Source: Gracilimonas sp.
GTDB taxonomy: Bacteria; Bacteroidota; Rhodothermia; Balneolales; Balneolaceae
Reading direction: 5' to 3'
DNA: 64,000 nt
Assembly (NCBI RefSeq): GCF_040218225.1
Contig: NZ_JAVJQO010000006.1
Span: 248,001-312,000, forward strand
The translations under genes were made by a program, and so were the position numbers. This document shows positions 15,504 through 52,205 of the stretch, one piece after another (position 1 is the stretch's first letter; each line of letters starts with the position of its first letter). Below the pieces are notes generated by a model. That model had not been told where the DNA came from. It saw nothing but the letters and a program-made list of their open reading frames with translations, and made no database searches.

Positions 15504-15512
15504 ATGCATTAA

Positions 15513-17517: not shown

Positions 17518-17521
17518 TTTT

Positions 17522-18379: not shown

Positions 18380-18383
18380 AAGT

Positions 18384-18653: not shown

Positions 18654-18675
18654 AATATCACTCATTCCACATCAA

Positions 18676-18996
18676 CTAATGGACGGTTCGATCACTGTCG
18701 ATAATATCGTCTGGCCGTTTCATTTTACGGTACCGGAAGTTATGAAGCGATCTGGACGTCTCTTTACTCATTTCAATAGTACCAAAGACTTGTTGTCTGA
18801 GACTTTCAAATTCACTCCACGAAATATCCCCCCTGTCAACTTCTGTCAAAAACTCAGCCAACATATGAGTGTACCATTCTTGGTCAATATCATTGATAAA
18901 GTACTCAGGAAACTCACCATCAAAATGCTCAAGCAACATCTTGTGTGCTTTTTCTCTGTTCTTTTCTGGGATCTCTTCTGGTTTCAAATTCTTCAT
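18676..18996 (-). CDS. Small acidic hypothetical protein
   Basis: About 106 residues with no family I recognise. I chose ATG 18996 because an AGAGGG ribosome site lies just upstream on the minus strand. The frame remains open to 19032. The composition (many Glu, Asp, Phe and Trp) looks like a real soluble protein. It is transcribed away from the next mobility gene with 34 bases between the starts, so the two may share a regulatory region. Confidence 0.55.
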   Translation of the reverse strand: MKNLKPEEIPEKNREKAHKMLLEHFDGEFPEYFINDIDQEWYTHMLAEFLTEVDRGDISWSEFESLRQQVFGTIEMSKETSRSLHNFRYRKMKRPDDIIDSDRTVH

Positions 18997-19030
18997 AGTC
19001 GCCCTCTTAATTTTTTTAATTATACCATAC

Positions 19031-21143: not shown

Positions 21144-21901
21144 AGCAAAAATCATACTTCAAACAAGTGTTCAGACGAACAAATTTTAAGCTCTCATTTC
21201 TGTCATTTTTCTACAGCATATGTTCAGTTCCCCGGCTTCTTCTTGAAGTCTTTATCCGAAAAAATATGGGGTCGAGATATTTCAGTTTTGGGCTAAGTAT
21301 TATTCTCTTTTTACTTTTTCTCATTACACTATTATTTAGTGCTTTCTCACAAGCGGCGTCCTTTTCTGCACTCGGCAGTAATGGCTACGGACTTGGTATA
21401 TTTGGGATACTGTTTTTTGTCTTTGCAAATAAACGTCGATCTGAAATCAACAGTGATCCGACGCATGTCAGCTTTGATGAATTCAGTTTGTCCACAGGTG
21501 AATTGACAGGTTGGTTTAAGTCAAGAAAAGAGAATGGTACAAGTTTACGGAGGATTGAAATATGGTTTGAACCCCTTCCCTTTTTTATTGGTGGTTTGGT
21601 GTTAATGTTTATTCCATTTACTCGAATACTTGGCCTCCTTCTTCTCCTATCCAGTGTCCTTTATTCACTGAGTTACATGGGCGCTTATGCGTTAGCCAGA
21701 GATTTTATTATGGACAAGATTGATGAGAAAATTGCCGGAGAAGAAATGGGGCAAGCTCTTAAATCTGGGTTAGCTGGACATGAGGCCAGAGGCTTTACAA
21801 ATCGCTCCCCCATACCAACCGATGAAGAGCATAGAGATCAGCTCTACAATCTGATTTTAAAGCGAGATAAATCAGGCGAACCAACAGCCGTTGCGCAATA
21901 A
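21140..21901 (+). CDS. Mobilization-associated membrane protein
   Basis: A 253-residue inner-membrane protein whose ATG overlaps the coupling-protein stop by 4 bases. It has hydrophobic segments at about 48-72 and 78-96, and a pair at about 145-185, with a soluble C-terminal tail. The coupling protein lacks its own membrane anchor, so this may be the split membrane half (inference). I recognise no named family. Confidence 0.65.
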   Translation: MKQKSYFKQVFRRTNFKLSFLSFFYSICSVPRLLLEVFIRKNMGSRYFSFGLSIILFLLFLITLLFSAFSQAASFSALGSNGYGLGIFGILFFVFANKRRSEINSDPTHVSFDEFSLSTGELTGWFKSRKENGTSLRRIEIWFEPLPFFIGGLVLMFIPFTRILGLLLLLSSVLYSLSYMGAYALARDFIMDKIDEKIAGEEMGQALKSGLAGHEARGFTNRSPIPTDEEHRDQLYNLILKRDKSGEPTAVAQ

Positions 21902-22126
21902 AAAATTAAAGAGACATGACAGTGCGTAAGCTCTGTCTCATCTGACCGAAACACTGCTTAGGGGAGATGTCTGATAGGATTGCGCACTGCTTGAAGCTAC
22001 GCACTGTCATAAGTCAATCTAACGCACTGCACGTTACGCACGAACACCGTATGAGCGTAGGAAACCTGTGATGTTTATCCCATAAATAGACCTTCACTCA
22101 AGAGGGAATATCACCGAGAAAATGTT
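21902..22126 (+). other. Candidate origin of transfer (oriT) upstream of the relaxase
   Basis: A 225-base gene-free gap directly before the MobF relaxase, dense with repeats of GCGCACTG/ACGCACTG. The longest is an inverted pair: ATGACAGTGCGTAAGC at 21916-21931 and GCTACGCACTGTCAT at 21996-22010. Further direct copies begin at 21982 and 22022, with a related ACGCAC near 22036. A smaller hairpin, GAGACA/TGTCTC, covers 21911-21939. MobF elements usually place oriT next to the relaxase gene with inverted repeats beside the nick. The nick base itself cannot be assigned from sequence alone. Confidence 0.68.
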
Positions 22127-24799
22127 ATGATACGAATGTTTCAAAGTCAAACTGTGGAGCAGGCTAAGACCTACTTTAATGAAGCTCTCAGCAAGGCGGA
22201 TTATTACATTGATGACCAGGAATTGAACGGACGCTTTCATGGAAAGCTGTCCTCTCGTTTAGGTATTGAACATGATATTGTTGAACGGGATATCTTTCAC
22301 AAACTGTGTGATAACATTCACCCCATCACGGGAGACAATCTAACACCTCGAACGGTGGATAATCGCCGGGTTGGGTATGACATTTCGTTTCATTGTCCAA
22401 AGTCTGTCTCCATCCTTCACGCCTTCGGTGATGATGACAGAGTTTTGGATTCCTTTCGAAAAAGTGTTTTAGAGACAATGCGAGAAATGGAAGCTGATAT
22501 GCAGACCAGAGTTCGCTTACAAGGCCAAAATCATGACCGGGATACCGGGGAATTAATGTGGACAGATTTTATTCACCAAACCGCCAGACCGGTTGATGAC
22601 CACCCCCCTGATCCGCATTTGCATTGCCACTGTTTTACCTTTAATGCCACATGGGATGAGACTGAAAATCGCATTAAGGCCGGACAGTTTCACAACATCA
22701 AAAGAGATATGCCGTGGTACCAAGCCAGGTTCCAAAAACGACTTGCCGATAAACTGTCTGAGTTGGGTTATGGGATACGAAAAACGGGCAGAAGTTTTGA
22801 GGTGTCAATCGTTCCTCAAAAAGCGATTGAGCACTTCTCAAAACGCACCAATGCGATTGGTCAAACGGCCAAAGAATTAGGCATTACTGATCCAGAAGAA
22901 CTCGATCAATTAGGGGCACGCACCAGAGGCAAAAAACAGTCCTCACGATCAATGCCGGAGCTTAAAAAATCATGGGTTGGGCAACTTAAAAAGGTCGGTA
23001 TAGATCACCACCTAAATGAAGAGATTGAAACGACTATTCGAGATCTAAATTCAGTGCAATGTATTGACCATGCTTTGAGCCATTCTTTTGCCAGAAAATC
23101 GGTTGAACGAGACCGTAGAATTTTAGCTGAAGGTTACCTGCATGGGATCGATTCAAAAGCTGTGTCATTGGATGATATTGACCAGGCTTTTGATAACGAT
23201 GATCGGGTGTTCAAAGTCCCTGATGGTAAAGATAAATTATGCACGACGATTCCGGTTCAGGCCGAAGAAAAGCGTATGGTGAAACTGGCAAAGAATATGC
23301 GAGGCTCTGTCAATCCAATCAGCCCGATTATGAATGAAACAGTGTTCGAGAATTTAAACGATGAGCAAGCGGTTGCCGTCAAACATATCCTCAAATCCAA
23401 CGACCTTTTGATGATGGTACGTGGTGGCGCGGGAACGGGTAAGACAACCATGATGAAATCGGCTGTGAAGCTCATAGAAGAATCTGAGAGACGTGTCTAT
23501 GCCTTTGCCCCGACTTCCGCTGCCTCACGGGATATGTTGCGCTCTGAGGGCTTTGAAAAGGCTGATACCGTTGCCCGGCTTTTAAAAGATGACAAGCTAC
23601 AGTCAGAGATTAAAGATCAAGTCATCTGGATTGATGAGGCCGGAATGCTTGGTACTAAAGATATGGGTGATATTTTAGAGTTAGCTGATGATCTGAATGC
23701 CCGGGTAATTTTGACTGGAGATACCCGTCAGCATACTGCCGTCCAACGTGGTGATGCCATGCGTATCTTGAGACAAGTGGCAGGGATTCCAATTCCGTCT
23801 GTGAACCGTATCTATCGCCAAAAAGGAAAAGAGTATCGTGAGGCTGTTGAGGCTATCAGTTCGGGGGATGTATCGAGTGGTTTTGATAAACTGGAGTCAT
23901 TGGGATGTATTGAAGAAATTGAGACCAATGACGTCTCAAAGCAATTAGCTGATGACTATTTACAAGCCCAAAAAGAAAACCGCTCTGCACTGGTGATCTC
24001 TCCCACCAATGAACAAGCTCAACTGGTTACGAATGGGATTAGACAAGGATTAAAAGACAGTGGTGAATTAGAAGACAAAGATCGCCCCTACTCTCGATTG
24101 AAAAACCTCTACTATTCGAATGCTCAAAAGAAAGACTGGCGGTCTTATAGAAAAGGTCAGGTTGTTCAGCTTCATCAGAATATGCCGGGATTGAAAAAAG
24201 GCTCTCAAACCACCGTAATTAAAGTTGATGATAAGAGCGTCAAGATCGTCCAAGATGGTCAGACTCATTCACTAGACCTGTCTCGCCCAGATGATTTTGA
24301 TGTTTACAACTCTTTTGAGATCAACCTATCCAAAGGTGACCGTATTCGCATCACAAAGAACGGCTTTGATAACAATGGCCGTCGCTTGAACAATGGTAAG
24401 ATATTGGAAGTGGACAGCTTTAGCCGTCAGGGTGATATCCGACTGAAAACGCCAAATCGAAAGAATGGTGCCATTTATGAAATTGATAAAGACTTTGGCA
24501 ATTTCAATCATGCCTATTGCATTACCTCTTATGCCTCCCAGGGCAAGACAGTAGATCGGGTATTGATTGCTCAACCCTCTGCCACCTTCCCGGCCTCCAA
24601 CATGAAGCAGTTCTATGTCTCGGTCTCCCGTGGTCGAGAAGCTGTAAAAATCTATACCGATGATAAAGAGGATCTTCTACAAACGATCCACAAAGAAGGG
24701 AACCGTATGTCAGTCCATGAACTTGAGGAGATAGATCAAGGTCGCACGCAAGCCAAATCTAAAACCCCTAATAAAGGAGATTATGAACCGGATATCTAA
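22127..24799 (+). CDS. MobF-type conjugative relaxase-helicase (TrwC/TraI-like)
   Basis: An 890-residue bifunctional enzyme that would nick oriT, stay bound to the 5' end and unwind the strand. The relaxase domain (about 1-290) has tyrosines at 26-27, DISFHCPKSVSI, and the metal-binding histidines 164, 166 and 168 in PDPHLHCHCF. The helicase domain (about 400-860) is SF1, RecD-like, with Walker A GGAGTGKTTM near residue 432, VIWIDEAGML, and the C-terminal YVSVSRGRE. It is full length for the shorter TrwC class. No pore genes are present, so the element is probably mobilizable rather than self-transmissible. Confidence 0.95.
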   Translation: MIRMFQSQTVEQAKTYFNEALSKADYYIDDQELNGRFHGKLSSRLGIEHDIVERDIFHKLCDNIHPITGDNLTPRTVDNRRVGYDISFHCPKSVSILHAFGDDDRVLDSFRKSVLETMREMEADMQTRVRLQGQNHDRDTGELMWTDFIHQTARPVDDHPPDPHLHCHCFTFNATWDETENRIKAGQFHNIKRDMPWYQARFQKRLADKLSELGYGIRKTGRSFEVSIVPQKAIEHFSKRTNAIGQTAKELGITDPEELDQLGARTRGKKQSSRSMPELKKSWVGQLKKVGIDHHLNEEIETTIRDLNSVQCIDHALSHSFARKSVERDRRILAEGYLHGIDSKAVSLDDIDQAFDNDDRVFKVPDGKDKLCTTIPVQAEEKRMVKLAKNMRGSVNPISPIMNETVFENLNDEQAVAVKHILKSNDLLMMVRGGAGTGKTTMMKSAVKLIEESERRVYAFAPTSAASRDMLRSEGFEKADTVARLLKDDKLQSEIKDQVIWIDEAGMLGTKDMGDILELADDLNARVILTGDTRQHTAVQRGDAMRILRQVAGIPIPSVNRIYRQKGKEYREAVEAISSGDVSSGFDKLESLGCIEEIETNDVSKQLADDYLQAQKENRSALVISPTNEQAQLVTNGIRQGLKDSGELEDKDRPYSRLKNLYYSNAQKKDWRSYRKGQVVQLHQNMPGLKKGSQTTVIKVDDKSVKIVQDGQTHSLDLSRPDDFDVYNSFEINLSKGDRIRITKNGFDNNGRRLNNGKILEVDSFSRQGDIRLKTPNRKNGAIYEIDKDFGNFNHAYCITSYASQGKTVDRVLIAQPSATFPASNMKQFYVSVSRGREAVKIYTDDKEDLLQTIHKEGNRMSVHELEEIDQGRTQAKSKTPNKGDYEPDI

Positions 24800-26341: not shown

Positions 26342-27256
26342 TTAATAATTTAATAAGTCATTAATATTTATGTCTGGTAGGTCTTTATTTTCAAGAGTAT
26401 GACCATTTGCCCAACATTTTTCAAATAAATTGCGGTATTTTTCTATAGAATCCTCTTTACTAATGTAAATTCCTTTAAGGTTTCTTTCTTCGTCATATTC
26501 AATTGTTTTATATACTGTCTTATTACTGTAGATACCAAAGTCAATACAATCGTTATTGAAGCCATAGTCCGACATCAACCTTTCAAACTCAGTAGCTCCT
26601 ATAACCCGGAATTCATATTTTCTTGTATTACTATGAGCTGCAATAATTTTTTTACTAATCTCACTCATTAGCTCTACTTCATTTTCATATACAAATAACC
26701 GACTTACCTTTTTTACTTTCTTATTTTTTACACTCTCATCGACTTTTCGTAACCATTGTTTTTCATGTACATTTAATAACTCTGAATTATACTTAAGCCT
26801 ATGTACAATTCTTATAAAGTCTTGACTAGAACCATTGAATGAATCTAATAATATATCACTCAAATAAAGATGCTCATGATTAATTTCAATTTCTCCTGAA
26901 GCAACTACAGAATTTAGTTCTTGCTCTAATCCATTAATTTTTTTTATAAAATATTCATTCAGTATACTTCCCTTTTTATTTACAATTCTATTGTTGATAA
27001 ATAAAGCTCGAACATTATGTAAAATTCTAGAAATTTCATTTTCGATCCTCTCTATTTTTATTAGTTCTTTTCTCTCAACTTCTTTCAGGTTCAACATTAT
27101 GAGTATTTCTATTAGACTTACCACGATAAAAATAATTAAGCCAAAAATTATACTATTAAAGTAAGGCTGACTTGCTAATTCATTGCCTAAAAGAATAGGT
27201 AGCGCAACACTCACAAGAACATTAATTATAAGAAGTAAGTAAAAGTAGTTTTTCAA
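26342..27256 (-). CDS. Two-TM membrane protein with C-terminal sensor-like domain
   Basis: A 304-residue protein with two N-terminal membrane helices (about 4-22 and 32-55), a helical region (about 60-180) and a C-terminal alpha/beta domain (about 185-300). That domain ends IEKYRNLFEKCWANG, a pattern shared by several regulatory domains that follow a response or PLD-like fold. No catalytic motif is evident. It sits between the degenerate Nudix and VOC genes with gaps of 12 and 3 bases. It could be a membrane sensor or an effector. I cannot name the family. Confidence 0.6.
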   Translation of the reverse strand: MKNYFYLLLIINVLVSVALPILLGNELASQPYFNSIIFGLIIFIVVSLIEILIMLNLKEVERKELIKIERIENEISRILHNVRALFINNRIVNKKGSILNEYFIKKINGLEQELNSVVASGEIEINHEHLYLSDILLDSFNGSSQDFIRIVHRLKYNSELLNVHEKQWLRKVDESVKNKKVKKVSRLFVYENEVELMSEISKKIIAAHSNTRKYEFRVIGATEFERLMSDYGFNNDCIDFGIYSNKTVYKTIEYDEERNLKGIYISKEDSIEKYRNLFEKCWANGHTLENKDLPDININDLLNY

Positions 27257-27268
27257 AATCCAGAATTT

Positions 27269-27751
27269 TTAGTCATATAATTTATGAAGTAAATCAAATA
27301 CATCACCTAGCTGACTTGTTTCCCACCAGGGAAATTCATCTGGGATATTAGTTTTATTAAATGCAACAATTTCGGAAACCAGATCAGATGTCTTGGGCTT
27401 ATCTTCAACTTCAGCTAATATATTTAGACACATATGCCAGTGATTATTATCATCTGCCCAACTCACAAAATTTTGGAATTGAATACCCTCCAATTTAATG
27501 CTAGCATATTTCTTGGTAAGCCGATTAGCACATTGAAAAGCTGATTCTCCAAATCTTATCAACCCATGAGGAAAATAAAGACCATTTTTTTTTGCCCCAT
27601 GTAATCCATCAGGTAATCTTAGGCCAAAAATATTTCTTCTATTGTGTAATATAATATCAAAAGTTAAATGTGCACCACCTTGTACTTCTTTCTGTAACGG
27701 TGGGCCAAAATTTGCTTCTTTATTTTCATAAAAGTATTCGTAATCTGACAT
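27269..27751 (-). CDS. Nudix-fold protein with degenerate catalytic box
   Basis: A 160-residue protein. The Nudix-fold framework is clear (GLYFPHGLIRFGES, then an alpha-helix and WHMCLNIL). In the box, G-x5-E is kept, but the REUxEExGU part reads RLTKKYAS, so the metal-binding glutamates are gone. It should not hydrolyse nucleoside diphosphates by the normal mechanism and may bind a nucleotide as a sensor or carrier. It starts 9 bases after the QueC-like gene, with overall similarity to GDP-mannose-hydrolase-like small Nudix proteins. Confidence 0.68.
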   Translation of the reverse strand: MSDYEYFYENKEANFGPPLQKEVQGGAHLTFDIILHNRRNIFGLRLPDGLHGAKKNGLYFPHGLIRFGESAFQCANRLTKKYASIKLEGIQFQNFVSWADDNNHWHMCLNILAEVEDKPKTSDLVSEIVAFNKTNIPDEFPWWETSQLGDVFDLLHKLYD

Positions 27752-27760
27752 TTTTCCCCT

Positions 27761-28402
27761 TTATTTTTGTTGAAATTCCTCTAAAGCCCTTTTTCTATCT
27801 AAACATGATATACATTCGTTGCAGGGATCATTCCTATCAATCCAACAACTCCATGATTTATCAATTGGGGCATTTACTTTAATTCCTAATTCAACAGCCT
27901 CTTGATCAGACATATGAATTAATGGCATGATTATTTCGACTTCACTTTTTATCCTTTCTTCTTTAAGAAAGCTTGTAGAAAAAGAAACTCTGCATGCGTT
28001 CTCTAGTATTCTAAAAAAATTATAGCTTGCATCAGCATGGACCTTACTATCTGATTTTAAGTGCCCCCCAATTATTTTTTTCGCATGTAAAATATCTGCA
28101 TAATGTGCTGCAATCGAATAAAAAATTAAATTTCTCATTGGGATATATGAATCTGAACTACCATATACATTTCCATCACCATATTTTATTTGCCTAAATG
28201 ATTTTATAAATGGTAGTTCGATTTCCAATAACTTAACCCCATAAGCGTGGCAAATTTTTTGGGCTGCCAAAATTTCCTTTTTAGGTCTTTCTGGAAATAA
28301 ATAAGAGAGACAAATTACTTCACCATACCTTTCTAGAGCCCACGCTAATGCAATTGTAGAATCAAGCCCACCCGAAAAAAGTATAATTGCTTTACTGTTC
28401 AT
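27761..28402 (-). CDS. QueC-like 7-cyano-7-deazaguanine synthase family protein
   Basis: A 213-residue ATP-pyrophosphatase-fold protein of the QueC family, whose known member turns carboxydeazaguanine into the nitrile preQ0. The PP-loop is SGGLDST at residues 10-16, the middle has YIPMRNLIFYSIAAHYA, and the zinc site is a late Cys cluster (SCWIDRNDPCNECISC). No QueD, QueE, QueF or TGT gene is near, so this is not a queuosine operon. QueC paralogues are also found in defence systems and in deazaguanine natural-product pathways. The start overlaps the SDR stop by 4 bases. Confidence 0.88.
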   Translation of the reverse strand: MNSKAIILFSGGLDSTIALAWALERYGEVICLSYLFPERPKKEILAAQKICHAYGVKLLEIELPFIKSFRQIKYGDGNVYGSSDSYIPMRNLIFYSIAAHYADILHAKKIIGGHLKSDSKVHADASYNFFRILENACRVSFSTSFLKEERIKSEVEIIMPLIHMSDQEAVELGIKVNAPIDKSWSCWIDRNDPCNECISCLDRKRALEEFQQK

Positions 28403-29145
28403 GCTGAAATTCCTCCATCAATATAAATTAGTTGTCCAGTTATGTATGAAGAATTATTTGATAATAAGAATTGTACCAAATCCGATACTTCTTTTGGCTT
28501 TCCTAATCTTTTCATCATCTTTTTAACAGCTTGTAAATTCTTTTTTTCACTATCAGATAACTTCCACCCCTCAATCCAATCTGTTTTTATGGAACCTGGT
28601 GCAATAACATTGGCTCTAATATTTGGAGCTAATGCTCGCGCTAATGATTTCGTCAACCCTACAACCCCTACTTTAGCAGAATTATAAATAAATGTATCTG
28701 CATCACCCCTCATTGAACCGCTCGAGGAGAAATTTACAATTGCTCCTCCATCTTTTTCCATCAATGGAATTGAGAATTTAGAGCATAGAAAAACAGCCGT
28801 TAAATCTATTTTAAGACATTTTTCCCATTGATCTAATGAGATTTTAGTAGGTTTTATGTTCCAGAGTTTTTCCGAGGAATATGAGGCATTATTGACTAAA
28901 AAATCTAATTTTCCAGATTCATCATAAATGACTTTAAAGACTTCTCTTATATTACTTTCAAGTAAAAAATTTGCTTGAATTGCTGATAAATTGTAATCCT
29001 CTATTAAAGACTCCGCTTTCTGTTTATTTTGATTGTATGTAAAGTAAACTTTACACCCTTGATTCTTTAAGTCAACACAAATTTTTTCCCCAATTTTACT
29101 CGTTCCCCCAGTAACTAATGCTATTTTACCTTTAAATTTATTCAT
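28399..29145 (-). CDS. Short-chain dehydrogenase/reductase, first gene of the six-gene operon
   Basis: A 248-residue classical SDR. The NAD(P) motif is TGGTSKIGE near residue 14, the structural motif is NNAS, and the catalytic residues are Ser in SSSGSMRGD and Tyr-Lys in YNSAK. The C-terminus has VIAPGSIKTDW and ITGQLIYIDGG. It resembles FabG and sugar or secondary-metabolite reductases; a lipid role is less likely next to a QueC-like gene. It is the promoter-proximal gene, and the promoter should lie in the AT-rich 29146-29203. Confidence 0.9.
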   Translation of the reverse strand: MNKFKGKIALVTGGTSKIGEKICVDLKNQGCKVYFTYNQNKQKAESLIEDYNLSAIQANFLLESNIREVFKVIYDESGKLDFLVNNASYSSEKLWNIKPTKISLDQWEKCLKIDLTAVFLCSKFSIPLMEKDGGAIVNFSSSGSMRGDADTFIYNSAKVGVVGLTKSLARALAPNIRANVIAPGSIKTDWIEGWKLSDSEKKNLQAVKKMMKRLGKPKEVSDLVQFLLSNNSSYITGQLIYIDGGISA

Positions 29146-43243: not shown

Positions 43244-44821
43244 ATGGAAATTCTATCGATTGGATTAGCATATATATTAGGGATGGTCGTATCGATTATA
43301 CGACTTCCTCCTTTAGTCGGCTATTTAGGAGCCGGTTTTCTACTTTCGATTTTGGGTTATAGTGGTGGAGAAACACTTAATGAAATAGGTCACCTTGGCG
43401 TGCTATTTCTATTATTTACTGTTGGATTACATTTAAGATTTAAGAACCTCTGGCGAGCTGAGGTTATCGGGGTGGGTGCCCTCCATCTTCTTATATCTAG
43501 TTTTGTTTTCTTTATGATTGCATTGGGTTTTAGATATACTTTTACAAGCTCAGTAATTATTGCTGTTTTATTAGGATTTTCAAGCACGGTCATCACGGCA
43601 AAATCATTGGAGAGTCGGGGCGAACTCGGAGCTTATCATGGAAGGGTGGCAATTGGAATTCTTATAATGCAAGATATAATTGCAATATCTCTTCTTGCAA
43701 TAACTGCGGGTAGGACCCCATCGATTTGGGTATTTTCATTAATAGCTCTTCCTTTATTAAGACCTATTCTTATTAAAGCATTACAACTTAGCAAAGTAGA
43801 TGAGTTATTACTTTTATATGGCCTTTTGCTTGCTATAGGAGGAAGCATAATTTTTGATTTTCTTGGTTTATCGTCAGAACTGGGAGCACTTACGGCTGGT
43901 GCATTAATAGCTGGTCACAAGGAAACTGAAGATCTTTCAAAAAAGCTATGGGGTTTGAAGGAAGCATTCTTGGTTGGCTTTTTTTTGGAGGTGGGTTTAG
44001 CAGGCTTACCATCAATGAATGAGTTAACCTTTTTTGTTACAGTAATCCTGCTTCTTCCGGTAAAAGCAATTCTATTTTTTGCCTTATTTATTGCGTTCAA
44101 ATTACGTGCCCGAACAGCATTTATGAGTGCAATATCCTTGTCATCTTATAGTGAGTTTATATTGATAGCAGGAGTAGCAGCTGCTAGTACTGGTTTTATT
44201 CCAAACTCCATTGTTGTCTTATTCGCACTTTTGGTGTCAGCTTCATATGCTTTAAATGCACCTATAATTACAAGAGTTGAACAGATTTGGGAAAGATGGG
44301 AAAAGAAGCTTTTAAAATTTGAAAGAGATGTTAAACACCCAGATCAACAAGTTATTTCTTTAGGAGGTGCTCAATTTTTGGTAGTAGGCATGGGTAGTGC
44401 AGGAAAAGCCGCATACGATTATCTCAAAGAGAAGAATTTACATGCAGTAGGCTTAGATATTGACCCAGGACGTATTGAGGCAAATATTCAAGATGGTCGA
44501 AGGGTTGTTTATGGAGATGCTCAAGATCCTGAGCTTTGGAAAAATGTGAATATGCAACCAATAAAAGCTGTAATTCTAACCATAACTAATGCTGATCCTA
44601 AAATCTTAGCAACAAAACTGCTGCGTAAATACGGTTATTCTGGGGAAATAAATACACTAACCATGAAGTATGATGAATTTCAATTACTTCAGGGAGCAGG
44701 AGCTAATGCTGTATGTTTACCTATTATGCAGGCCGGGCAAAAGCTAGCGGAATTAAGTACAGATAATAATCTTGATATCTCTCATACCTCCATAAGATTA
44801 GAGTTCGACGCTCAGATATGA
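43244..44821 (+). CDS. CPA2 cation:proton antiporter with TrkA-N domain (KefB/KefC-like)
   Basis: A 525-residue inner-membrane antiporter: about 12 membrane helices (1-360) with the CPA2 pattern (GHLGVLFLLFTVGLH, LLGFSSTVITAK) and a C-terminal NAD-binding TrkA-N/RCK domain starting LVVGMGSAGKAAYDY. Members exchange K+ or Na+ for H+, and Kef proteins are gated by glutathione adducts. The thioredoxin-like gene overlaps its stop by 4 bases and a UBP zinc-finger gene follows, which suggests thiol- or redox-linked control. The neighbouring monooxygenase and DsbA genes support a reactive-electrophile context (inference). Confidence 0.92.
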   Translation: MEILSIGLAYILGMVVSIIRLPPLVGYLGAGFLLSILGYSGGETLNEIGHLGVLFLLFTVGLHLRFKNLWRAEVIGVGALHLLISSFVFFMIALGFRYTFTSSVIIAVLLGFSSTVITAKSLESRGELGAYHGRVAIGILIMQDIIAISLLAITAGRTPSIWVFSLIALPLLRPILIKALQLSKVDELLLLYGLLLAIGGSIIFDFLGLSSELGALTAGALIAGHKETEDLSKKLWGLKEAFLVGFFLEVGLAGLPSMNELTFFVTVILLLPVKAILFFALFIAFKLRARTAFMSAISLSSYSEFILIAGVAAASTGFIPNSIVVLFALLVSASYALNAPIITRVEQIWERWEKKLLKFERDVKHPDQQVISLGGAQFLVVGMGSAGKAAYDYLKEKNLHAVGLDIDPGRIEANIQDGRRVVYGDAQDPELWKNVNMQPIKAVILTITNADPKILATKLLRKYGYSGEINTLTMKYDEFQLLQGAGANAVCLPIMQAGQKLAELSTDNNLDISHTSIRLEFDAQI

Positions 44822-45345
44822 AAGAATTGACAGTGAAAATAGGAGATACAGATTACTCGAAAGGTGAAAAAGGCGCCATACTACAATTAGTGGAATATGG
44901 AGATTATGAATGCCCTTTTAGCCAACTTGGATATAGGTTAGCCTTAATATTAATGCGAAATACTAATTTTTCAATACGATTTACCATCAGAAATTTTCCT
45001 TTAAAAAAGCATCCTAATGCTCAGTTAAGTGCTGAAGCTGCCTTAGCAGCTGGGTCTCAAGGATTATTTTGGGAAATGCACGATTTGCTATTCGACAATT
45101 ACCAAAACCTAAACAAATCAAGACTCACTGGACTTGCAAATGATGTAGGCTTAGATATAAAACTTTTCAGTGAGGACTTAGATCAAAGAAAATTTTGAGA
45201 GCGTGTCTATAAGCAACTTAAAAGTGGTATAAATCTGGGAGTAAGTGATACACCTACATTCTTCGCAAATGGTAAAAAGTTTAGGGGTAAATTGAGTTAT
45301 AAAAGGCTAGAAGAATTTCTTAAAAAGTTAAACATCAAATACTAA
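44818..45345 (+). pseudogene. DsbA-like thioredoxin-fold partner of the antiporter, with in-frame TGA
   Basis: It overlaps the antiporter stop by 4 bases (ATGA). The frame reads VEYGDYECPFSQLGY, FRNFPL-like and EMHDLLFDN, then TGA at 45196-45198, then continues in the same frame with ERVYKQLKSG, DTPTFFANGKK and a stop at 45343-45345. The whole 175-residue reading matches the thioredoxin domain found fused to or beside Na+/H+ antiporters. The active-site second Cys is already replaced (CPFS). A single nonsense change truncates it, losing the cis-Pro loop. Read-through is possible but not supported. Confidence 0.82.
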
Positions 45346-45361
45346 ATGGAAGCTGTCAATC

Positions 45362-45618
45362 ATGATTTGTTCACAAACAAACAAGATAAACATAGAAGAA
45401 ACTGATATTTCAGTTGTCAAGATTGTCTTGACAAAGGAGATAGTTGGGTTCAGCTTAGATTATGTATGGTTTGTGGTTATGTTGGTTGTTGTAATTCTTC
45501 AAAGAACAAACATTCCTTCAAGCATCATCATAGAAGTAAACACCCTTTAGTTAAATCACTTAAATTTAACGAAAACTGGATGTATTGCTACATAGATAAC
45601 ATTTATCTAGATATTTAA
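45362..45618 (+). pseudogene. UBP-type zinc-finger protein, broken reading frame
   Basis: The C-terminal part is a clear ZnF-UBP: CQDCLDKGDSWVQLRLC, CGYVGCC, HHHRSKHPL and MYCYIDN, ending at TAA 45616-45618. It has no start in its own frame after an in-frame TGA at 45403-45405. A plausible N-terminus (MICSQTNKINIEETDIS from ATG 45362) is in another frame, so a one-base shift near 45410 is likely. UBP proteins of this kind often sit beside CPA2 antiporters, which fits the gene upstream. Confidence 0.72.
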
Positions 45619-45825: not shown

Positions 45826-46065
45826 ATGGAAGAGTTATGTCTTAAACATATTTATAGATTAGAGCATATCCCCAAGCGATGTGCTCCTATCAGTGATTCA
45901 GATGTCACATTAGAATTGGCTGAAAAATGCCAAAAGATAGTTGCGAAGCTAGTTGTAGAAGAAGGCGAAAAATACTTACCACTTTTTGAAAGAGTGAACC
46001 ACGAATTTGAATCCCTGAAAAAACAAAAAAGTCTTATAAACTTTGCTCACCAAGTAGCTTCTTAA
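45826..46065 (+). CDS. Small helical protein upstream of the second integrase
   Basis: A 79-residue soluble protein, helical and rich in Lys and Glu (LELAEKCQKIVAKLVVEEG, LPLFERVNHEFESL). I have seen similar short proteins (YLPxFERL) beside DUF6538-type integrases in proteobacterial genomes, but no function is known. Its stop is followed at once by the first set of 12-bp iterons. Confidence 0.58.
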   Translation: MEELCLKHIYRLEHIPKRCAPISDSDVTLELAEKCQKIVAKLVVEEGEKYLPLFERVNHEFESLKKQKSLINFAHQVAS

Positions 46066-46171: not shown

Positions 46172-46195
46172 GTTTCAATCTCGTACGGGGCACCA
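46172..46195 (+). other. Candidate attachment core between the iteron clusters
   Basis: The segment GTTTCAATCTCGTACGGGGC plus ACCA has the look of a tRNA or tmRNA 3' end (TTCAA loop, then ACCA) but the stems do not pair. It lies midway between two identical iteron clusters, as an attachment core would. No second copy was seen by eye in the window. Confidence 0.3.
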
Positions 46196-46296: not shown

Positions 46297-46329
46297 TGGG
46301 TTACAAAATGGGTTACATTTTGGGTTACA
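46297..46329 (+). repeat. Iteron cluster B (three 12-bp repeats)
   Basis: Three TGGGTTACA copies with 12-base period start at 46297, 46309 and 46321, immediately before the integrase ribosome site. They match cluster A in unit, number and period, 219 bases away. Confidence 0.78.
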
Positions 46330-46341: not shown

Positions 46342-47622
46342 ATGCAATACCTGATGAAGCGTGGAAATAGATATTATTATTACAGACGAGTACCGAACGC
46401 CGTTTCGGATCTTGTGGATTCTAAGTTTTTCAAACTCTCCCTAAAAACCGACTCCAAGGAATTAGCAAAAAGGAAATGTGTTCAGGTCAATGCTGAAATT
46501 GAAAGTTACTGGGAGTCTCTTTTGAGTTCAAAAGAAACACATACTAAATCTAAGTTTGATGAAGCCGTAGATGTAGCAAAAATAATTGGCTTTAACTACC
46601 TACCTATTCAACGCCTTTCTTCTGAAGTTTCCAGAAATGAAATATATGAACGTATTCTCTTGGCAGACGAAAATAAAGAGCATCCTATCATTCGGAGTGC
46701 CATTTTAGGTACTGTCGAAGCCCCCGAAATAACGGTTTCAAAAGCTTTGGAAACTTTCTGGACGATATCCAAAGATAAACTCATCAATAAATCTGAGAAA
46801 CAGATTCGTAAGTGGAAGAACCCACGCAAGAAAGCTATCAGGAACTTCATTAACATATGCGATGACTTACCGATTGAGAAAATCGAACGACATCATCTGG
46901 TTAAATTTAAAAACTGGTGGGTAGAACGTATAGAAACTGAAGGGCGAAGTCCAAATACTGTTAATAAGGAGATCATCAACCTAAAGAATATCATCCAATC
47001 AGTTGCTTTACATTATGACCTCAAGCAAGACTTCCAGAAGCTATTTAGAAAATTAACTTTAAAAGAGAGACAAGAACAGCTCCGCAAACCATTTGATAGT
47101 ACCTTTATCAAAGAAGAAATTCTTCACCCGAACGCATTTAGTGATTTAAATGACGAAGCAAAGAATATCGTATTTGCTCTTATAAATACCGGAGCAAGAC
47201 CTTCAGAGATTATTGGACTTTCTGAAGACGATATCAAACTAGATTATGAGATACCTCATGTTTTAATTCGCCCGAATAAGTTTCGTAACCTTAAAACACC
47301 ACAAAGTACACGTGTAATGCCTTTACTGGGTTGTTCTTTGGAAGCTTTAAAAAAATATCCAACTGGATTTTTACGATACCGAGGAAAACCTGACAGCTTT
47401 TCAAGTCTGGTGAACAAATATTTCAGGAATAACGACTTACTCCCATCAAAGAAGCATAGTTTGTATTCACTGAGACATGGCTTTCAGGATCGTTTAACCA
47501 GGTCTAATGTTAATGATCGGATGCAAGCAGAACTAATGGGACATAAGTTTAACCGTCCGCTTTATGGAGATGGGCCTACTTTAGAGCAAAAGCAAAAGTG
47601 CCTTATAAAAATATCGCTATAG
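46342..47622 (+). CDS. Tyrosine recombinase with DUF6538-type N-terminus (second integrase)
   Basis: A 426-residue integrase. I chose ATG 46342, behind the ribosome site AAGGAGAG; the longer frame to 46273 just translates the iterons. The N-terminus MQYLMKRGNRYYYYRRVP is the DUF6538 type, more usual in Proteobacteria than in this lineage. Catalytic residues: Arg in NTGARPSEIIGL, SLRHGF with its His-x-x-Arg-His arrangement, and a late His/Tyr in LMGHKFNRPLYG. It seems complete. It faces the helicase-nuclease operon, with a 55-base gap between the ends. Confidence 0.93.
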   Translation: MQYLMKRGNRYYYYRRVPNAVSDLVDSKFFKLSLKTDSKELAKRKCVQVNAEIESYWESLLSSKETHTKSKFDEAVDVAKIIGFNYLPIQRLSSEVSRNEIYERILLADENKEHPIIRSAILGTVEAPEITVSKALETFWTISKDKLINKSEKQIRKWKNPRKKAIRNFINICDDLPIEKIERHHLVKFKNWWVERIETEGRSPNTVNKEIINLKNIIQSVALHYDLKQDFQKLFRKLTLKERQEQLRKPFDSTFIKEEILHPNAFSDLNDEAKNIVFALINTGARPSEIIGLSEDDIKLDYEIPHVLIRPNKFRNLKTPQSTRVMPLLGCSLEALKKYPTGFLRYRGKPDSFSSLVNKYFRNNDLLPSKKHSLYSLRHGFQDRLTRSNVNDRMQAELMGHKFNRPLYGDGPTLEQKQKCLIKISL

Positions 47623-47677
47623 ATTTTAATCCTACAACTGGTAAAACTATAGCCCTTTTTTGAAGAAACTAATTTTA

Positions 47678-49540
47678 CTATATCAGAATAACTTCTTCGT
47701 CCTCAAACCAACCTTCATTAATAACAAAATCATGAACAGCGTCAGGATTAGCTGTATAAGCTACAACAGCTAAACTTTCCTCAGCTCTACTACAAGTCAC
47801 ATAAAAAAGTCTTCTCGTTCTCTGAATACTGGTCTCCTTTCCTTCTTCACGATTTTTTTTATCTGTTTTTGTCGGCGCTTTAGCTGCGAATAATTTTTCA
47901 TAGCTGAACAGAAATCCTCTAGATTCTTCATCATCCATGATTACCATAACCCTTGGATATTCTAAACCTTTAACACCTTGATGCGTGCCAAATGTAGCTT
48001 CATCATTTATGTATAAATGATATTTCTCAACTTGTGAAAATGGTGCTTCGATTGCTTCCTTGAAAGAAATTATTGTATCAACATTTTCATATTCATCAGC
48101 TACATCATTGCTGTCTAAACTCCAATCTAATGACTTTTCTAAAAGATCTGGGATAGTCAGTAATTCTGACTCCTTTAGTTCTTTAAGTATTTCTGCGATT
48201 ATAGGATCATTATTATTGTCCCATAATCTCAATAATGATTCAGTTTTTTCGTCAACATTTTCCAATAACTCAATTTGCTTATCTTTGTCTTTTAGATTCT
48301 CTTTCGACAAAAAGGGTGAATTCCTTGTAATTATTTTTGAAATCGTAAATTCATCACCTTTCCTATAAGCTACAACTATTGGCAATATTACATTGGTTAA
48401 GAATCTCATCTCAGGCATTGATCCATCAAGTAAACTCGTTGAAAGTCGGGAGTTCTTATATAATGGCTCGAATAGTTCTAAAAAACCCATTCTACTTGCT
48501 GCCATATGATGTTCTAAAATTAATGATTTAACATCTGAACCCTCTCCAAACCACAATTTATCACCCGTTTCTTCGGCCATTCTTTTTCTAATATCTGCTT
48601 CTGTCTTTTCCTTATCATCAGTTCCTTTGACTATAAATAATCTTGCATATCCTTCTGGCTTATCATCTCGTGGCTCTTGTTTATGTTCATCATCATAACT
48701 TCTGATTTTGTTGATCAATCTGATGACTCTCTTGGGTGATCTATGATTTATAACTTTACTAGGCTTTTCCCAATCCTCCGGTAAGTCTCTTCCTAGGTTT
48801 TCTTTACCATCGGCGTAAATTCGTTGCATCATATCTCCAAAAAGCCCTAGAGAAAACTTCTCTTTTTTTTCTTGTTGGACTTCAAATAAGGCGTTTATTA
48901 GATGCTTATTGGTATCCTGACTCTCATCAATTAACAGGATTGGAAATTTTTGAACTAAAATTTCCTTCATAGTGTCATTTTCAGATAGAAAATCTGAGCA
49001 CATTAAAATCACTTCACTATGATTGACTGATTCTCTTGAGTAATTATCTCCATTCGGGTTGTAGGTAAACTTTCTAATATGAGATAAATTTTCCAGTCTT
49101 TTACTTTTGGATTCTAATTTCTTGATTCTATTAGCATGTGCTTGAGTACCTGCCCGGCCATTTTTATGCTTCTCTTCAATCTCATGTATTCTTTTTTTTG
49201 TATCTGTTTCAAGCCAATCTCGCATATCATCTTGGTAAGGCTTGATTAGCTCCCAAGAAAAGCTGTGAATAGTTCGAACAAAAAATAGATTATCATGTTC
49301 AAGACGGGCTATGATTTCATCACAAGCGGCATTTGTATAGGTAATAACCGCTACTCTTTGGCCTCTTAAAGAAAGCTTTTTTTTAGACTCTTCTTTTATC
49401 TTTTTTAGGACATTTACTAGCGACCTTGTCTTACCAGACCCAGCACCGGAAAAAAGAAAAAAGCTTTTTGGTGCATTGAGATTCAAAAAACCATATAACT
49501 CTTTATCTAACTTTGGAATATCTTCTTTAATCGTTTTCAT
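47678..49540 (-). CDS. UvrD/PcrA-like SF1 helicase, partner of the OLD nuclease (GajB-like)
   Basis: A helicase of about 620 residues. Motif I is FSGAGSGKTRSL (about residue 33), then ITYTNAACDEI, motif II LLIDESQDT, GDMMQRIYADG, and the C-terminal motifs THQGVKGLEYPRVMV and RRLFYVTCSRAE. I chose ATG 49540, though 49549 is also possible. It overlaps the OLD gene. In Gabija, the ATPase-nuclease GajA and UvrD-like GajB form one complex that senses nucleotide loss and cuts DNA. This one is longer than the Bacillus cereus GajB (about 494 residues). Confidence 0.85.
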   Translation of the reverse strand: MKTIKEDIPKLDKELYGFLNLNAPKSFFLFSGAGSGKTRSLVNVLKKIKEESKKKLSLRGQRVAVITYTNAACDEIIARLEHDNLFFVRTIHSFSWELIKPYQDDMRDWLETDTKKRIHEIEEKHKNGRAGTQAHANRIKKLESKSKRLENLSHIRKFTYNPNGDNYSRESVNHSEVILMCSDFLSENDTMKEILVQKFPILLIDESQDTNKHLINALFEVQQEKKEKFSLGLFGDMMQRIYADGKENLGRDLPEDWEKPSKVINHRSPKRVIRLINKIRSYDDEHKQEPRDDKPEGYARLFIVKGTDDKEKTEADIRKRMAEETGDKLWFGEGSDVKSLILEHHMAASRMGFLELFEPLYKNSRLSTSLLDGSMPEMRFLTNVILPIVVAYRKGDEFTISKIITRNSPFLSKENLKDKDKQIELLENVDEKTESLLRLWDNNNDPIIAEILKELKESELLTIPDLLEKSLDWSLDSNDVADEYENVDTIISFKEAIEAPFSQVEKYHLYINDEATFGTHQGVKGLEYPRVMVIMDDEESRGFLFSYEKLFAAKAPTKTDKKNREEGKETSIQRTRRLFYVTCSRAEESLAVVAYTANPDAVHDFVINEGWFEDEEVILI

Positions 49541-51755
49541 CGGCCCCATCTGCTATTACTTTGTCAGTCATAAATTTCTGATTATTCAATTCCTCTTCAA
49601 GCCACTTCAATCCAACTTTGATGTACTCAGGAACCCTCAGTTCCGATGGGTCTTTCAAAAAAAGCAGATCAAGAGCTAACTTAGCTTTTTGCCCTTTTCG
49701 TAAGTCTTTAAACAATTGTGTCGCACATTCTTCCAAATCATCTAACTTAAAAGCTTCTTTAAATTTTGTAATTAGACCAACTCCATCCAGTGAATTGAAT
49801 AAATCAATATTTTCATAGGCTAAAGCATCTTCGAAAGTATAGGGAACCACTTTTTGAGCATCTTCATTTAATTTGATACTTACAGGTACCTGAAAAGCAG
49901 CCATGATTTTTTTATCATCAGATAGTTTAGCTTCTTGTTCAAGTTCAATCAAATCATCAAGTCCTTCTTTTTTTGGCAGCCAATCTTTAATGGTTTTATT
50001 ACCTGTTATCTGACCGTCACCTACTTTTGGGACAACAGCACTTCCATCTTTAGAGGCATCCAAATCTGTAATAATCAATGTTATTATCCCGAGATTTTCT
50101 ATAAGAGGTCTCAGTCTGTGGGCATGACTTCCACCAATTTCTAACAATGAAATATAGCTAGTATTCAAGTTTGGGAAATTTTGTTCAATAAAGTGTGGCA
50201 GAAGCATTTTCTCAGCAGACCCCTCAACCATTATGACGGCATCCGCAAAAAACAAATCACAATGTGTAGTCTTTAAATACCTAACAGCAAATTTTCTTGT
50301 TTCGTCTTCAGTTCCAAATGCCCTTGAAATATCAATTACGACTGAAGTAGGAACTGATTTTTCATCTTTAGCAAGTATTCTTTTAAAATATCTCAGTGCT
50401 CCAAAATCACTTTCATGAGCAATATGGTTTGAGTGAGTGCTGACAATTAATTGAGTTGAAAACTGTGTTTTTTTACCCAAATTCTCATCATTTCGGAGCA
50501 CCTCAAAAGCCTTCCTTATAAAGACTTGCTGAACCTGGGCATGAAGGTGAGCTTCAGGCTCTTCAACTAAGACTAAATGTAATGGTTCATAGGTTATTTC
50601 ATCTGCAGTATCAAACTCTGTAGTCTCTGCTTTACCGGTTTTCATCCATTCGTCTCTAAAACGTATGAGTTTAAATACCATCGAAATAAGATTCTGGTAA
50701 CCTAACCCATTGTAGACTTCTGGTAAACTAAGAGGATCATCATCTTGTTCCCCCTCTTTAAGCAAACTAAATTGTACAGCAGAATTATGATCTAAAGAAT
50801 CAATTGGTTTTATCAGAGTAGATATAGTAATACTTGGGTTCCCGAAACCTGGATAATTTAATCCTTCTAGTTCATCAAGGGATTTGTGAAAGCTAGTTTT
50901 AAGAGTTTCATCAAAAACATCTTTAGCTTCTTCAATAGCTTCCAAGGCTTTAAGATCTGATTCTGTTGGTTGATCAGTAGGGTTTAAATGTTTTGAAAAA
51001 TAATCCCGTAATTGTTTGGAAAGACTCCCATAATTTGCAAAAGTATCATTAGGGTCGGAAAATCCTCTTTGAGCATTGACTATATCAATCTTAATCAAAC
51101 CATGAAAAGGATTTCCCTCTATTGGTTCCATATCCTCTTGAATTGATTGTAACTGAGCTACTCCTTGATCCGGTTCCTCAATAGCACCAGGATTTAGTTT
51201 ATAGGCTTTTATGGTAAATAGACTTTCAAATTTTTTCTTTTCCAAAAAATCCCACATTGAATACGGCCATAGTTTCAACTTTTTCTGCGAAGCCTCTTTA
51301 GTCTCTTTAGCTTTTAGATAATTAGAACGAAAGTCTTTGAAGAACTTTTCCAGATCTTTTGGCTCATAAATTAATCTAACTCCTAATAGTCCACCTCTCC
51401 ATTTCAATGTGGGAATCAATTCATTGACATGATGGATTTCATCGTCTTCAACATGTAACCAGATATCCATTTTAGGGAGTAGATTTCGCCATTTATCTAT
51501 CGATAAATTTGGCTCATCTTCCTCATCTTGTTTTACCCAAGAATTTCCAATTGCATTGATTTCACCCCAATTGCTTAGTGTAATATCTTTCGTTTTAAAT
51601 CTAGATTTATCTTTTAAAAAAGTTATTAGTGCATCCATAGCTGATGTCTTACCGCTATTATTTGCACCAACAAAAATTGTTTCTTTTTCGGAAAAGCTAA
51701 TTCTGCACGATTTTAACTTTCTGAAATTCTCAATCTCTAGAAATTCTATTCGCAT
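49527..51755 (-). CDS. OLD-family ATPase/TOPRIM nuclease (GajA-like)
   Basis: A 742-residue overcoming-lysogenisation-defect nuclease. The ABC-type ATPase comes first: Walker A GANNSGKTSAMD near residue 33, signature/Walker B LVLVEEPEAHLH near residue 402 and the H-loop VSTHSN. The TOPRIM nuclease follows: MVEGSAEKMLL with the catalytic Glu near residue 510 and TDLDASKDG near 565. OLD proteins paired with a UvrD helicase are class 2 OLDs, which include Gabija GajA (about 578 residues), so this is larger. Its ATG overlaps the AlpA-like gene by 10 bases. Confidence 0.88.
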   Translation of the reverse strand: MRIEFLEIENFRKLKSCRISFSEKETIFVGANNSGKTSAMDALITFLKDKSRFKTKDITLSNWGEINAIGNSWVKQDEEDEPNLSIDKWRNLLPKMDIWLHVEDDEIHHVNELIPTLKWRGGLLGVRLIYEPKDLEKFFKDFRSNYLKAKETKEASQKKLKLWPYSMWDFLEKKKFESLFTIKAYKLNPGAIEEPDQGVAQLQSIQEDMEPIEGNPFHGLIKIDIVNAQRGFSDPNDTFANYGSLSKQLRDYFSKHLNPTDQPTESDLKALEAIEEAKDVFDETLKTSFHKSLDELEGLNYPGFGNPSITISTLIKPIDSLDHNSAVQFSLLKEGEQDDDPLSLPEVYNGLGYQNLISMVFKLIRFRDEWMKTGKAETTEFDTADEITYEPLHLVLVEEPEAHLHAQVQQVFIRKAFEVLRNDENLGKKTQFSTQLIVSTHSNHIAHESDFGALRYFKRILAKDEKSVPTSVVIDISRAFGTEDETRKFAVRYLKTTHCDLFFADAVIMVEGSAEKMLLPHFIEQNFPNLNTSYISLLEIGGSHAHRLRPLIENLGIITLIITDLDASKDGSAVVPKVGDGQITGNKTIKDWLPKKEGLDDLIELEQEAKLSDDKKIMAAFQVPVSIKLNEDAQKVVPYTFEDALAYENIDLFNSLDGVGLITKFKEAFKLDDLEECATQLFKDLRKGQKAKLALDLLFLKDPSELRVPEYIKVGLKWLEEELNNQKFMTDKVIADGADEND

Positions 51756-52042
51756 TTTTTATAAGCCTTATTATCTAGTTTGTCTCTTTTTTTGTATGTA
51801 GTTGGGGATTTCAACCACTTAATAATATCCTCTACCCGATAAGCTTTTCTTCTTTCAGAAGACGTTAACTCTACCGGCTCTGGAAATTGCCCCTTTCGTC
51901 TTTGACGATATTGAGTCGTCTTATCCAGTGTAGTTATTATCTCAGCATCTTCAATCGATATAAAGCCGTTGATCTGAATCATTAATTCTGCTAGTGGTGA
52001 TGATTCACTATTACCCAACAATTCAATGTTGTCATCTTCCAT
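51746..52042 (-). CDS. AlpA-like DNA-binding protein, first gene of the nuclease-helicase operon
   Basis: A 98-residue small regulator with an excisionase/AlpA pattern: SIEDAEIITTLDKTTQYRQRRKGQFPEPVEL, with RRKGQFPEPV the hallmark, then AYRVEDIIKWLK. In P4-like satellites, AlpA activates the integrase or acts in excision. Here it is placed as the operon head of the defence pair, so it may control both mobility and immunity. It starts with the ribosome site AAGGAGA upstream. Confidence 0.83.
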   Translation of the reverse strand: MEDDNIELLGNSESSPLAELMIQINGFISIEDAEIITTLDKTTQYRQRRKGQFPEPVELTSSERRKAYRVEDIIKWLKSPTTYKKRDKLDNKAYKKCE

Positions 52043-52205
52043 GTATTTTCTCCTTTAAATTGCTAAAAGACACATGGATGGTATTAAATACTCAAGCGGT
52101 TTGACACGCACAATACTAAATATTTTCTCTTACTTCATGTCGAATTTTTACAAAGCATGACGATACCTATTCTACTATAATTATGCTTCTGCTAGAGATT
52201 ATTCT

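What the first reader, a model, noticed from the sequence alone, without database searches (positions are those of the whole stretch)
47678..52042. Gabija-like OLD/UvrD operon led by an AlpA-like gene inside a mini integrative unit
Seen: overlapping AlpA-like, OLD ATPase-TOPRIM and UvrD genes (overlaps 10 and about 14 bases), facing a DUF6538-type integrase. Known: OLD plus UvrD is the Gabija architecture. Both proteins are larger than the type members (742 and ~620 residues against ~578 and ~494). The AlpA-like gene as operon head is unusual. Inference: a self-contained 6-kb defence element in which mobility and immunity share a regulator.
Basis: partly seen in the sequence, partly recalled or inferred. 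Interest (0 to 1): 0.72.

Follow-up and report, generated by a model that had tools for sequence, protein, structure and literature searches.

The report
Gabija defence operon behind AlpA gene
A Bacteroidota bacterium carries an ordinary two-gene Gabija anti-phage system; the unusual touch is a small excisionase-like gene overlapping the front of its operon, opposite an integrase, so defence and mobility might be switched on together, which is untested.

Summary
The genes are real. GajA (49527-51755, 742 aa) and GajB (47678-49549, 623 aa) are a regular Gabija pair: near full-length PADLOC hits of 955 and 828 bits, TOPRIM and DEXQD catalytic residues present, GajB downstream of GajA in 85 of 86 relatives. 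Their size is normal for the subfamily (medians 745 and 629 aa). The 98-aa head gene is AlpA/excisionase-like: no Pfam hit, PHROG 2790 at 5.9e-8. The convergent integrase is DUF6538-type.

Not supported: a self-contained 6-kb element. No flanking repeat was found, a putative attP-like site lies unsplit beside the integrase, and the empty-site test was uninformative. Nor a recurrent AlpA-Gabija operon: 0 of 86 relatives (83 with at least 500 nt upstream) has AlpA at the operon head.

Integrase, AlpA and Gabija on one island is already published (I23, PMC12595487); related Gabija sits in tRNA-bounded integrase elements in E. coli. Verdict: known system in slightly unusual packaging; a shared mobility/immunity switch remains open and untested.

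The parts
51746..52042 (-). AlpA/excisionase-like gene, 98 aa, operon head; SD-like AAAGGAG at 52050-52056
   Evidence: PHROG 2790 5.9e-8; AlpA profile built without it 5.4e-13, sole hit at E<=10 among window ORFs of 35 aa or more; no Pfam hit at 0.01
49527..51755 (-). gajA: OLD-family ABC ATPase + TOPRIM nuclease, 742 aa, overlaps alpA by 10 nt
   Evidence: PADLOC GajA PDLC00093 955 bits; Pfam AAA_15 and OLD-like_TOPRIM; catalytic residues invariant in 65 sequences; AF2 model pLDDT 86 with GajA and OLD chains as best PDB matches
47678..49549 (-). gajB: UvrD/SF1 helicase, 623 aa (620 aa from ATG 49540), overlaps gajA by 23 or 14 nt
   Evidence: PADLOC GajB PDLC00111 828 bits; Walker A GAGSGKT and DESQD box invariant or nearly so in 22 sequences
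46342..47622 (+). DUF6538-type tyrosine integrase, 426 aa, convergent with the operon
   Evidence: Pfam DUF6538 2.3e-13, Phage_integrase 3.2e-6; 36% to a Roseicitreum plasmid integrase
46078..46110 (+). three TGGGTTACA-type repeats at 12-bp spacing (left set; one has a mismatch), putative integrase arm sites
   Evidence: (family D1); all five exact copies in the window lie in the two sets, but copies with up to one mismatch are not above shuffles in total (19 against 12.5, sd 3.9) and the clustering was not tested formally
46179..46195 (+). tRNA-3'-end-like sequence TCTCGTACGGGGCACCA, putative attP core between the two repeat sets; no other exact copy of its last 15 nt in this genome
   Evidence: tRNA likeness and att role are my reading; ARAGORN finds no tRNA
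46297..46329 (+). three exact TGGGTTACA repeats at 12-bp spacing (right set), just upstream of the integrase
   Evidence: (family D1)
47605..47660 (.). hairpin followed by a T-run between the convergent integrase and gajB stops, putative terminator for the integrase (borders approximate)
   Evidence: RNA fold of 47600-47675: z = -3.6 on + strand, -1.2 on - strand; not found by the consensus scan

Best explanation
A regular Gabija anti-phage system of the long-protein subfamily. GajA (OLD ATPase/TOPRIM DNA nuclease) and GajB (UvrD-like helicase) are expected to form one complex that acts on invading DNA. It is cargo of an integrase-bearing accessory segment, probably a degenerate or compact satellite-like or island-like element. 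The AlpA-like protein most likely serves the integrase as an excisionase/regulator, and its gene has come to sit, with overlapping reading frames, at the head of the gajAB operon. Shown here: gene identities, catalytic residues, overlaps, integrase domains. Inferred from family knowledge: nuclease activity, phage protection, the AlpA role. Not shown: present mobility, co-transcription, or regulation of Gabija by AlpA.
For: Near full-length PADLOC hits to GajA/GajB. E511 and D564/D566 align with E399 and D452/D454 of PDB chain 8j4t_A, which I take as E379 and D432/D434 of GajA (the chain is 20 residues longer than the 578-aa chains; offset is my inference; residue roles from PMC10781630 passages); they are invariant in 65 sequences. 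GajB D208-E209-S-Q211-D212 and Walker A are invariant or nearly so in 22. The GajA model's best PDB matches are GajA and OLD chains. GajB follows on the same strand in 85 of 86 relatives, within 150 nt in 84 of them (L026 and L105 hold fragments). AlpA assignment. Integrase. Precedents for integrase, AlpA and Gabija together: PMC12595487 passages, and L100, where an AlpA gene 3.3 kb beyond gajB faces an integrase (AlpA by profile, integrase by eye).
Against: No element boundary could be shown; the empty-site test was uninformative because the right flank matched no other genome. AlpA is not at the operon head in any sampled relative. Sequence similarity to solved GajA is low (39 bits in phmmer), so the biochemistry is extrapolated across a wide divergence. 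Foldseek TM-scores are only moderate (0.46/0.54, rmsd 10).
Confidence: 0.8

Rival explanations
1. The AlpA-like gene is an immunity regulator: a local transcription factor for gajAB with no role in recombination, like other small regulators at the head of defence operons.
For: AlpA heads the operon with a 10-nt overlap. AlpA has been suggested to be a transcriptional regulator and/or an excisionase (PMC10803314 section 8).
Against: An integrase gene lies convergent, 55 nt from gajB, and AlpA genes are common partners of integrases (recalled; also PMC12595487 and PMC10803314 passages). Upstream of alpA only a short direct repeat (8-9 nt) and two 6-nt inverted repeats were seen, not tested against chance. 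No sampled relative keeps AlpA with gajAB.
Confidence: 0.15
2. The AlpA-gajA junction is accidental: a Gabija operon landed behind a relic alpA of a decayed element, and the overlap has no functional meaning.
For: 0 of 86 relatives share it. The neighbouring dsbA-like and zf-UBP genes on the left look disrupted. The attP-like site is unsplit and without a second copy.
Against: Both alpA and int are open reading frames with good ribosome-site-like sequences (by eye), and the overlap places gajA where translational coupling is possible.
Confidence: 0.35
3. Not Gabija but another OLD-nuclease system (retron Eco8-type effector, PtuA, Class 1 OLD).
For: Weak NCBIfam hits to retron Eco8 effector and PtuA, far below cut-offs; retron Eco8 chains are among the fold matches.
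Against: No reverse transcriptase or HNH hit among the neighbours scanned; a UvrD helicase with GajB as best PADLOC hit follows directly; PADLOC GajA 955 bits; GajA and OLD chains hold the first six PDB ranks.
Confidence: 0.02

Closest known systems
Gabija (GajA/GajB), Class 2 OLD nuclease plus UvrD-like helicase
   Same: Gene order, domains, catalytic residues, overlap or close spacing of gajA/gajB, family models.
   Different: Longer than the 578-aa type GajA, as is the subfamily; preceded by alpA, which none of 86 relatives shows.
Island I23 acquired by Pseudomonas fluorescens SBW25 (intY, Gabija, alpA, next to tmRNA), PMC12595487 (passages read)
   Same: Tyrosine integrase, AlpA and Gabija on one mobile island without genes for autonomous transfer.
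   Different: There alpA is at the 3' end of the island and Gabija next to intY; the island has a 14-bp direct repeat at tmRNA and more genes; here no repeats were found.
PICMI satellites (int, alpA, primase), PMC10803314 (passages and section 8 read)
   Same: int plus alpA as mobility core; alpA belongs to an early regulon with its neighbours up1 and prim; some members carry anti-phage genes.
   Different: No primase is seen between the integrase and alpA, no boundaries; here Gabija lies directly behind alpA. In PICMIs the known defence systems lie between prim and fis.
E. coli tRNA-Thr element with a related Gabija pair (UTI89, VCSW8)
   Same: gajAB operon with a convergent site-specific integrase in a compact (about 10.7 kb) unit. 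The query was the Klebsiella pair L063, whose GajA is 50% identical to the window's.
   Different: Lies between two annotated tRNA-Thr genes; different integrase; no AlpA annotated, but a recombinase-family gene and an HTH gene lie upstream.

Membership tests
Gabija | GajA: N-terminal ABC ATPase plus C-terminal TOPRIM of the OLD family | tested here: met
   Pfam AAA_15 1.3e-58, OLD-like_TOPRIM 1.9e-19; PADLOC GajA 955 bits; fold match to GajA
Gabija | TOPRIM active site (Glu and DxD) intact | tested here: met
   E511, D564, D566 align with E399, D452, D454 of 8j4t_A, taken as E379, D432, D434 by an inferred offset of 20 (roles from PMC10781630 passages); invariant in 65 sequences
Gabija | UvrD/SF1 helicase GajB directly downstream with intact DEXQD box | tested here: met
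   PADLOC GajB 828 bits; Walker A and DESQD conserved in 22 sequences; downstream in 85 of 86 relatives
Gabija | GajA-GajB 4:4 complex, DNA cleavage, phage protection | not testable with these tools
   needs expression and assays
AlpA / excisionase family | AlpA/Xis profile match | tested here: met
   PHROG 2790 5.9e-8; profile of 23 other AlpA-like proteins, partly chosen by likeness to this one, finds it at 5.4e-13. Against: no Pfam hit at 0.01; single-sequence AF2 model uninformative, pLDDT 55
Site-specific integrative element | intact tyrosine integrase | tested here: met
   DUF6538 + Phage_integrase in one open frame of 426 aa; R, HxxR, H and Y residues seen by eye, motif recalled; activity not tested
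Site-specific integrative element | flanking att direct repeats, or an intact tRNA target at one end | tested here: not met
   no second copy of the putative core in window or genome; no tRNA in the window; other, unrecognised att sequences are not excluded
Site-specific integrative element | empty site in a relative | tested here: inconclusive
   left flank matched 12 of 37 genomes, own included, mostly as partial gene matches; right flank matched only the own genome, so no syntenic site could be compared
PICMI/PICI/P4-like satellite | primase/replication gene with int and alpA | tested here: not met
   only alpA, gajA, gajB lie between the integrase and the LysE gene apart from short antisense ORFs; no primase among 8 proteins scanned
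Recurrent AlpA-Gabija operon | alpA at the head of gajAB in independent loci | tested here: not met

The most novel reading that the evidence does not exclude
A minimal defence satellite in which the excisionase and the immune nuclease-helicase are made from one translationally coupled mRNA. The signal that frees the element (for instance an incoming phage, as for alpA in PICMIs) would simultaneously raise Gabija, so leaving the chromosome and cutting the phage become one decision, with no primase or packaging genes of its own.
Probability: 0.12. Interest if true: 0.6.

Novelty: new member of a known kind. Interest (0 to 1): 0.25.

Why it matters
As Gabija it adds one more member of a very common system. 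If the AlpA link were functional it would be a direct coupling of mobile-element excision to a nuclease-helicase defence, testable with two promoters and an excision PCR. As it stands it mainly shows Gabija of one subfamily in different integrase settings across phyla.

Tried and rejected
Tried without result: flanking direct repeats of the integrase-side core in window and genome; a tRNA gene carrying that core; the arm-repeat triplet and the core as exact patterns in viral contigs (none) and in the 148 loci then held (only four loci of this genome itself); empty sites among 37 genomes, own included (right flank found only in the own genome, so uninformative); integrase relatives in viral contigs (none), in 394 genomes of the phylum, own included (own only at E<=1e-30) and in 274 genomes of a gammaproteobacterial class sample (one hit at a contig end, E<=1e-20); AlpA relatives in plasmids (none at 0.01), phages (five weak hits) and 394 phylum genomes (one besides our own); AlpA by phmmer in the Gabija loci (none at 1e-3; the profile was more sensitive); a text motif for AlpA (it failed to find the window's own protein, so its result was discarded); a shared operator between alpA and int upstream regions (shared 7-9-mers above the shuffle mean but within the shuffle range); AF2 of AlpA alone (pLDDT 55, not used). 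DUF6538 is in no paper of the library. The paper search Gabija + AlpA gave 2 papers, one relevant.

Rejected: retron Eco8 effector or PtuA readings (far below cut-offs); 'oversized proteins' as a sign of novelty; a self-contained 6-kb unit as established fact.

L032, L055 and L099 are the same loci as L018, L020 and L021, which are not counted in the 86. The AlpA profile was seeded from likeness to the window protein and from PHROG 2790 hits. Of 109 plasmid records 6 contexts were viewed, and of 14 E. coli records 3. The neighbourhoods L145 and L146 were fetched but not analysed, L150 likewise.

Full report
Observation. Reading from 52042 leftwards: a 98-aa gene with a good ribosome-binding-like sequence (by eye), a 742-aa gene overlapping it by 10 nt, and a 623-aa gene overlapping that by 23 nt (14 nt if the second ATG, 49540, is the start). 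A tyrosine integrase on the other strand ends 55 nt before the gajB stop. The listed GTG start of the integrase (46273) is unlikely; ATG 46342 follows AAGGAG. A hairpin plus T-run between the convergent genes folds better than shuffles on the + strand (z -3.6; - strand -1.2), though the consensus terminator scan does not list it.

Gabija. The two large genes match the PADLOC GajA and GajB models over nearly their whole length at 955 and 828 bits, with Pfam AAA_15, OLD-like_TOPRIM and UvrD domains. PMC10781630 (passages read) names E379, D432 and D434 as the GajA TOPRIM site. In the alignment with PDB chain 8j4t_A the residues E399, D452 and D454 pair with E511, D564 and D566; I take the chain numbering to be 20 higher (598 against 578 residues). 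E511, D564 and D566 do not vary in an alignment of 65 sequences, the window protein and 64 of the 86 relatives. The GajB DESQD box and Walker A residues are invariant or nearly so in 22 sequences, the window protein and 21 relatives. An AlphaFold2 model of GajA (pLDDT 86) has GajA and OLD chains as its best PDB matches, with moderate TM-scores (0.46/0.54 for the first). Length is ordinary for the subfamily: GajA 706-808 aa with one shorter exception of 597, median 745 (n = 86); GajB median 629 (n = 85, fragments included).

Relatives. One scan of genome contigs kept 80 of 391 confirmed relatives and one scan of viral contigs gave 6; these 86 are the sample. Their titles span Bacteroidota, Firmicutes, Proteobacteria and others, and the 64 aligned ones have 44-57% identity, so the system moves widely. 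GajB follows GajA on the same strand in 85 of 86, within 150 nt in 84 and 852 nt away in L091; L026 and L105 hold only fragments of it, and the exception, L031, ends at the contig edge. Among 394 sampled genomes of the phylum only 5, our own included, have this GajA at E<=1e-60.

The AlpA-like gene. It has no Pfam or NCBIfam match at 0.01, but PHROG 2790 (excisionase and transcriptional regulator) matches at 5.9e-8. A profile made from 23 other AlpA-like proteins, without this one, finds it as the only hit at E<=10 among window ORFs of 35 aa or more, at 5.4e-13; its members were gathered partly by likeness to this protein, so the test is not fully independent. The profile with all 24, run on ORFs of at least 35 aa in the Gabija loci, gave seven hits at E<=0.01 in six loci. 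The one strong hit, L100 (2.5e-12), is an AlpA facing an integrase (by eye) 3.3 kb beyond gajB. None is at the operon head: the nearest upstream ones are 388 nt away on the other strand (L083) and 1.7 kb away on the same strand (L071), both weak. 83 of 86 loci have at least 500 nt upstream and 74 at least 2000. PHROG 2790 was also searched in the genomes behind 50 of the 86 loci: 11 of 50 have a match, and none of the 21 places falls in a fetched Gabija locus. Six plasmid contexts out of 109 records with the protein showed none. [quoted passage not shown]

The integrase and the site. The integrase is DUF6538 + Phage_integrase. It is rare: own genome only among 394 phylum genomes at E<=1e-30, one hit at a contig end among 274 gammaproteobacterial genomes at E<=1e-20. 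Best named matches are a Roseicitreum plasmid (36%) and Microcystis and Dinoroseobacter phages (34, 32%). Just upstream lie two sets of three TGGGTTACA-type repeats at 12-bp spacing on either side of TCTCGTACGGGGCACCA, which I read as a tRNA 3' end and thus a putative attP core. All five exact TGGGTTACA copies of the window are in these sets, but copies with up to one mismatch are not more frequent in the window than in shuffles (19 against a mean of 12.5; 6 of 100 shuffles reach it), and the clustering was not tested formally. The core has no other exact copy in the 3.5-Mb genome; matches with up to three mismatches are no more frequent than for the reversed control pattern (23 against 34). 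In an integrated element the two arms should be parted and the core repeated at the far end. Here both repeat sets stay together and no second core exists in the window, so, if the reading is right, the site looks unsplit: a relic, a tandem-insertion scar or an element that arrived another way. The flanks could not be used to find an empty site: the left flank has matches in 12 of 37 genomes, own included, mostly partial gene matches, and the right flank only in the own genome. A self-contained 6-kb mobile unit is therefore possible but not demonstrated.

Mechanism. Gabija needs no invention: GajAB forms one 4:4 assembly in B. cereus (PMC10781630, passages) and, by a 2025 preprint (PMC12407980, abstract read), is proposed to act on linear DNA devoid of RecBCD, blocking phage genome circularisation. 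[quoted passage not shown] The likeliest picture is an excisionase gene of the integrase with Gabija as cargo behind it. Whether operon coupling makes Gabija rise with excision is the open and novel part; short words shared by the regions upstream of alpA and int stay within the shuffle range.

Known comparisons. Island I23 carries intY, Gabija and AlpA together, although alpA lies at the opposite end (PMC12595487, passages). The Klebsiella pair L063 of this subfamily (GajA 50% identical to the window's) has near copies in 14 of 5,426 E. coli genomes. In two of three contexts viewed it lies with a convergent integrase between two tRNA-Thr genes; in the third (AH21I008) the same gene set sits elsewhere without annotated tRNA genes. 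So integrase-plus-Gabija mini-elements are seen elsewhere with clearer borders. Published statements that AlpA heads a Gabija operon were not found in the searches Gabija+AlpA, AlpA+defence+integrase+excisionase+satellite, GajA+GajB+island+integrase and Gabija+satellite+integrase+PICI (listings viewed, of which PMC12595487 and PMC10803314 were opened), which cover only the held library.

Host. A genome of the same family as this one, G270, holds the Gabija locus on a contig of 113,311 bases that is the Fodinibius halophilus contig of L055, so the host belongs to the family of Fodinibius in the Bacteroidota (Balneolaceae, name recalled). Verdict: real, correctly recognised, ordinary Gabija; unusual but isolated operon head; element status unproven.

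Noticed in passing
window 13205-24799: A second, unrelated mobile segment: tyrosine integrase (Arm-DNA-bind_5, Phage_int_SAM_5), a TraG/TraD-type coupling protein and a TrwC relaxase-helicase, suggesting an integrative mobilizable element.
   Followed up: partly
window 26342-29145: Cluster on the - strand with a QueC-like enzyme (PADLOC QueC 1.6e-19, QatC weak), a short-chain dehydrogenase and two proteins without clear family, next to the relaxase segment; could be nucleoside-modification or defence-type cargo.
   Followed up: partly
window 44818-45618: DsbA-like gene with an in-frame stop, and a zf-UBP gene broken or truncated, directly left of the integrase segment: probable pseudogenes or sequencing errors.
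   Followed up: partly
window 45826-46065: 79-aa ORF left of the first repeat set with no Pfam match; may be the tail of another or the same element.
   Followed up: no
L162 (E. coli AH21I008): The same Gabija/integrase gene set as at the E. coli tRNA-Thr site occurs here in a different place, near RADAR genes and without annotated tRNA genes.
   Followed up: no
L100 (Jannaschia), 2899-11970: Gabija followed 3.3 kb beyond gajB by an AlpA gene facing a different integrase (AlpA by profile, integrase by eye): an independent meeting of the three gene types.
   Followed up: partly
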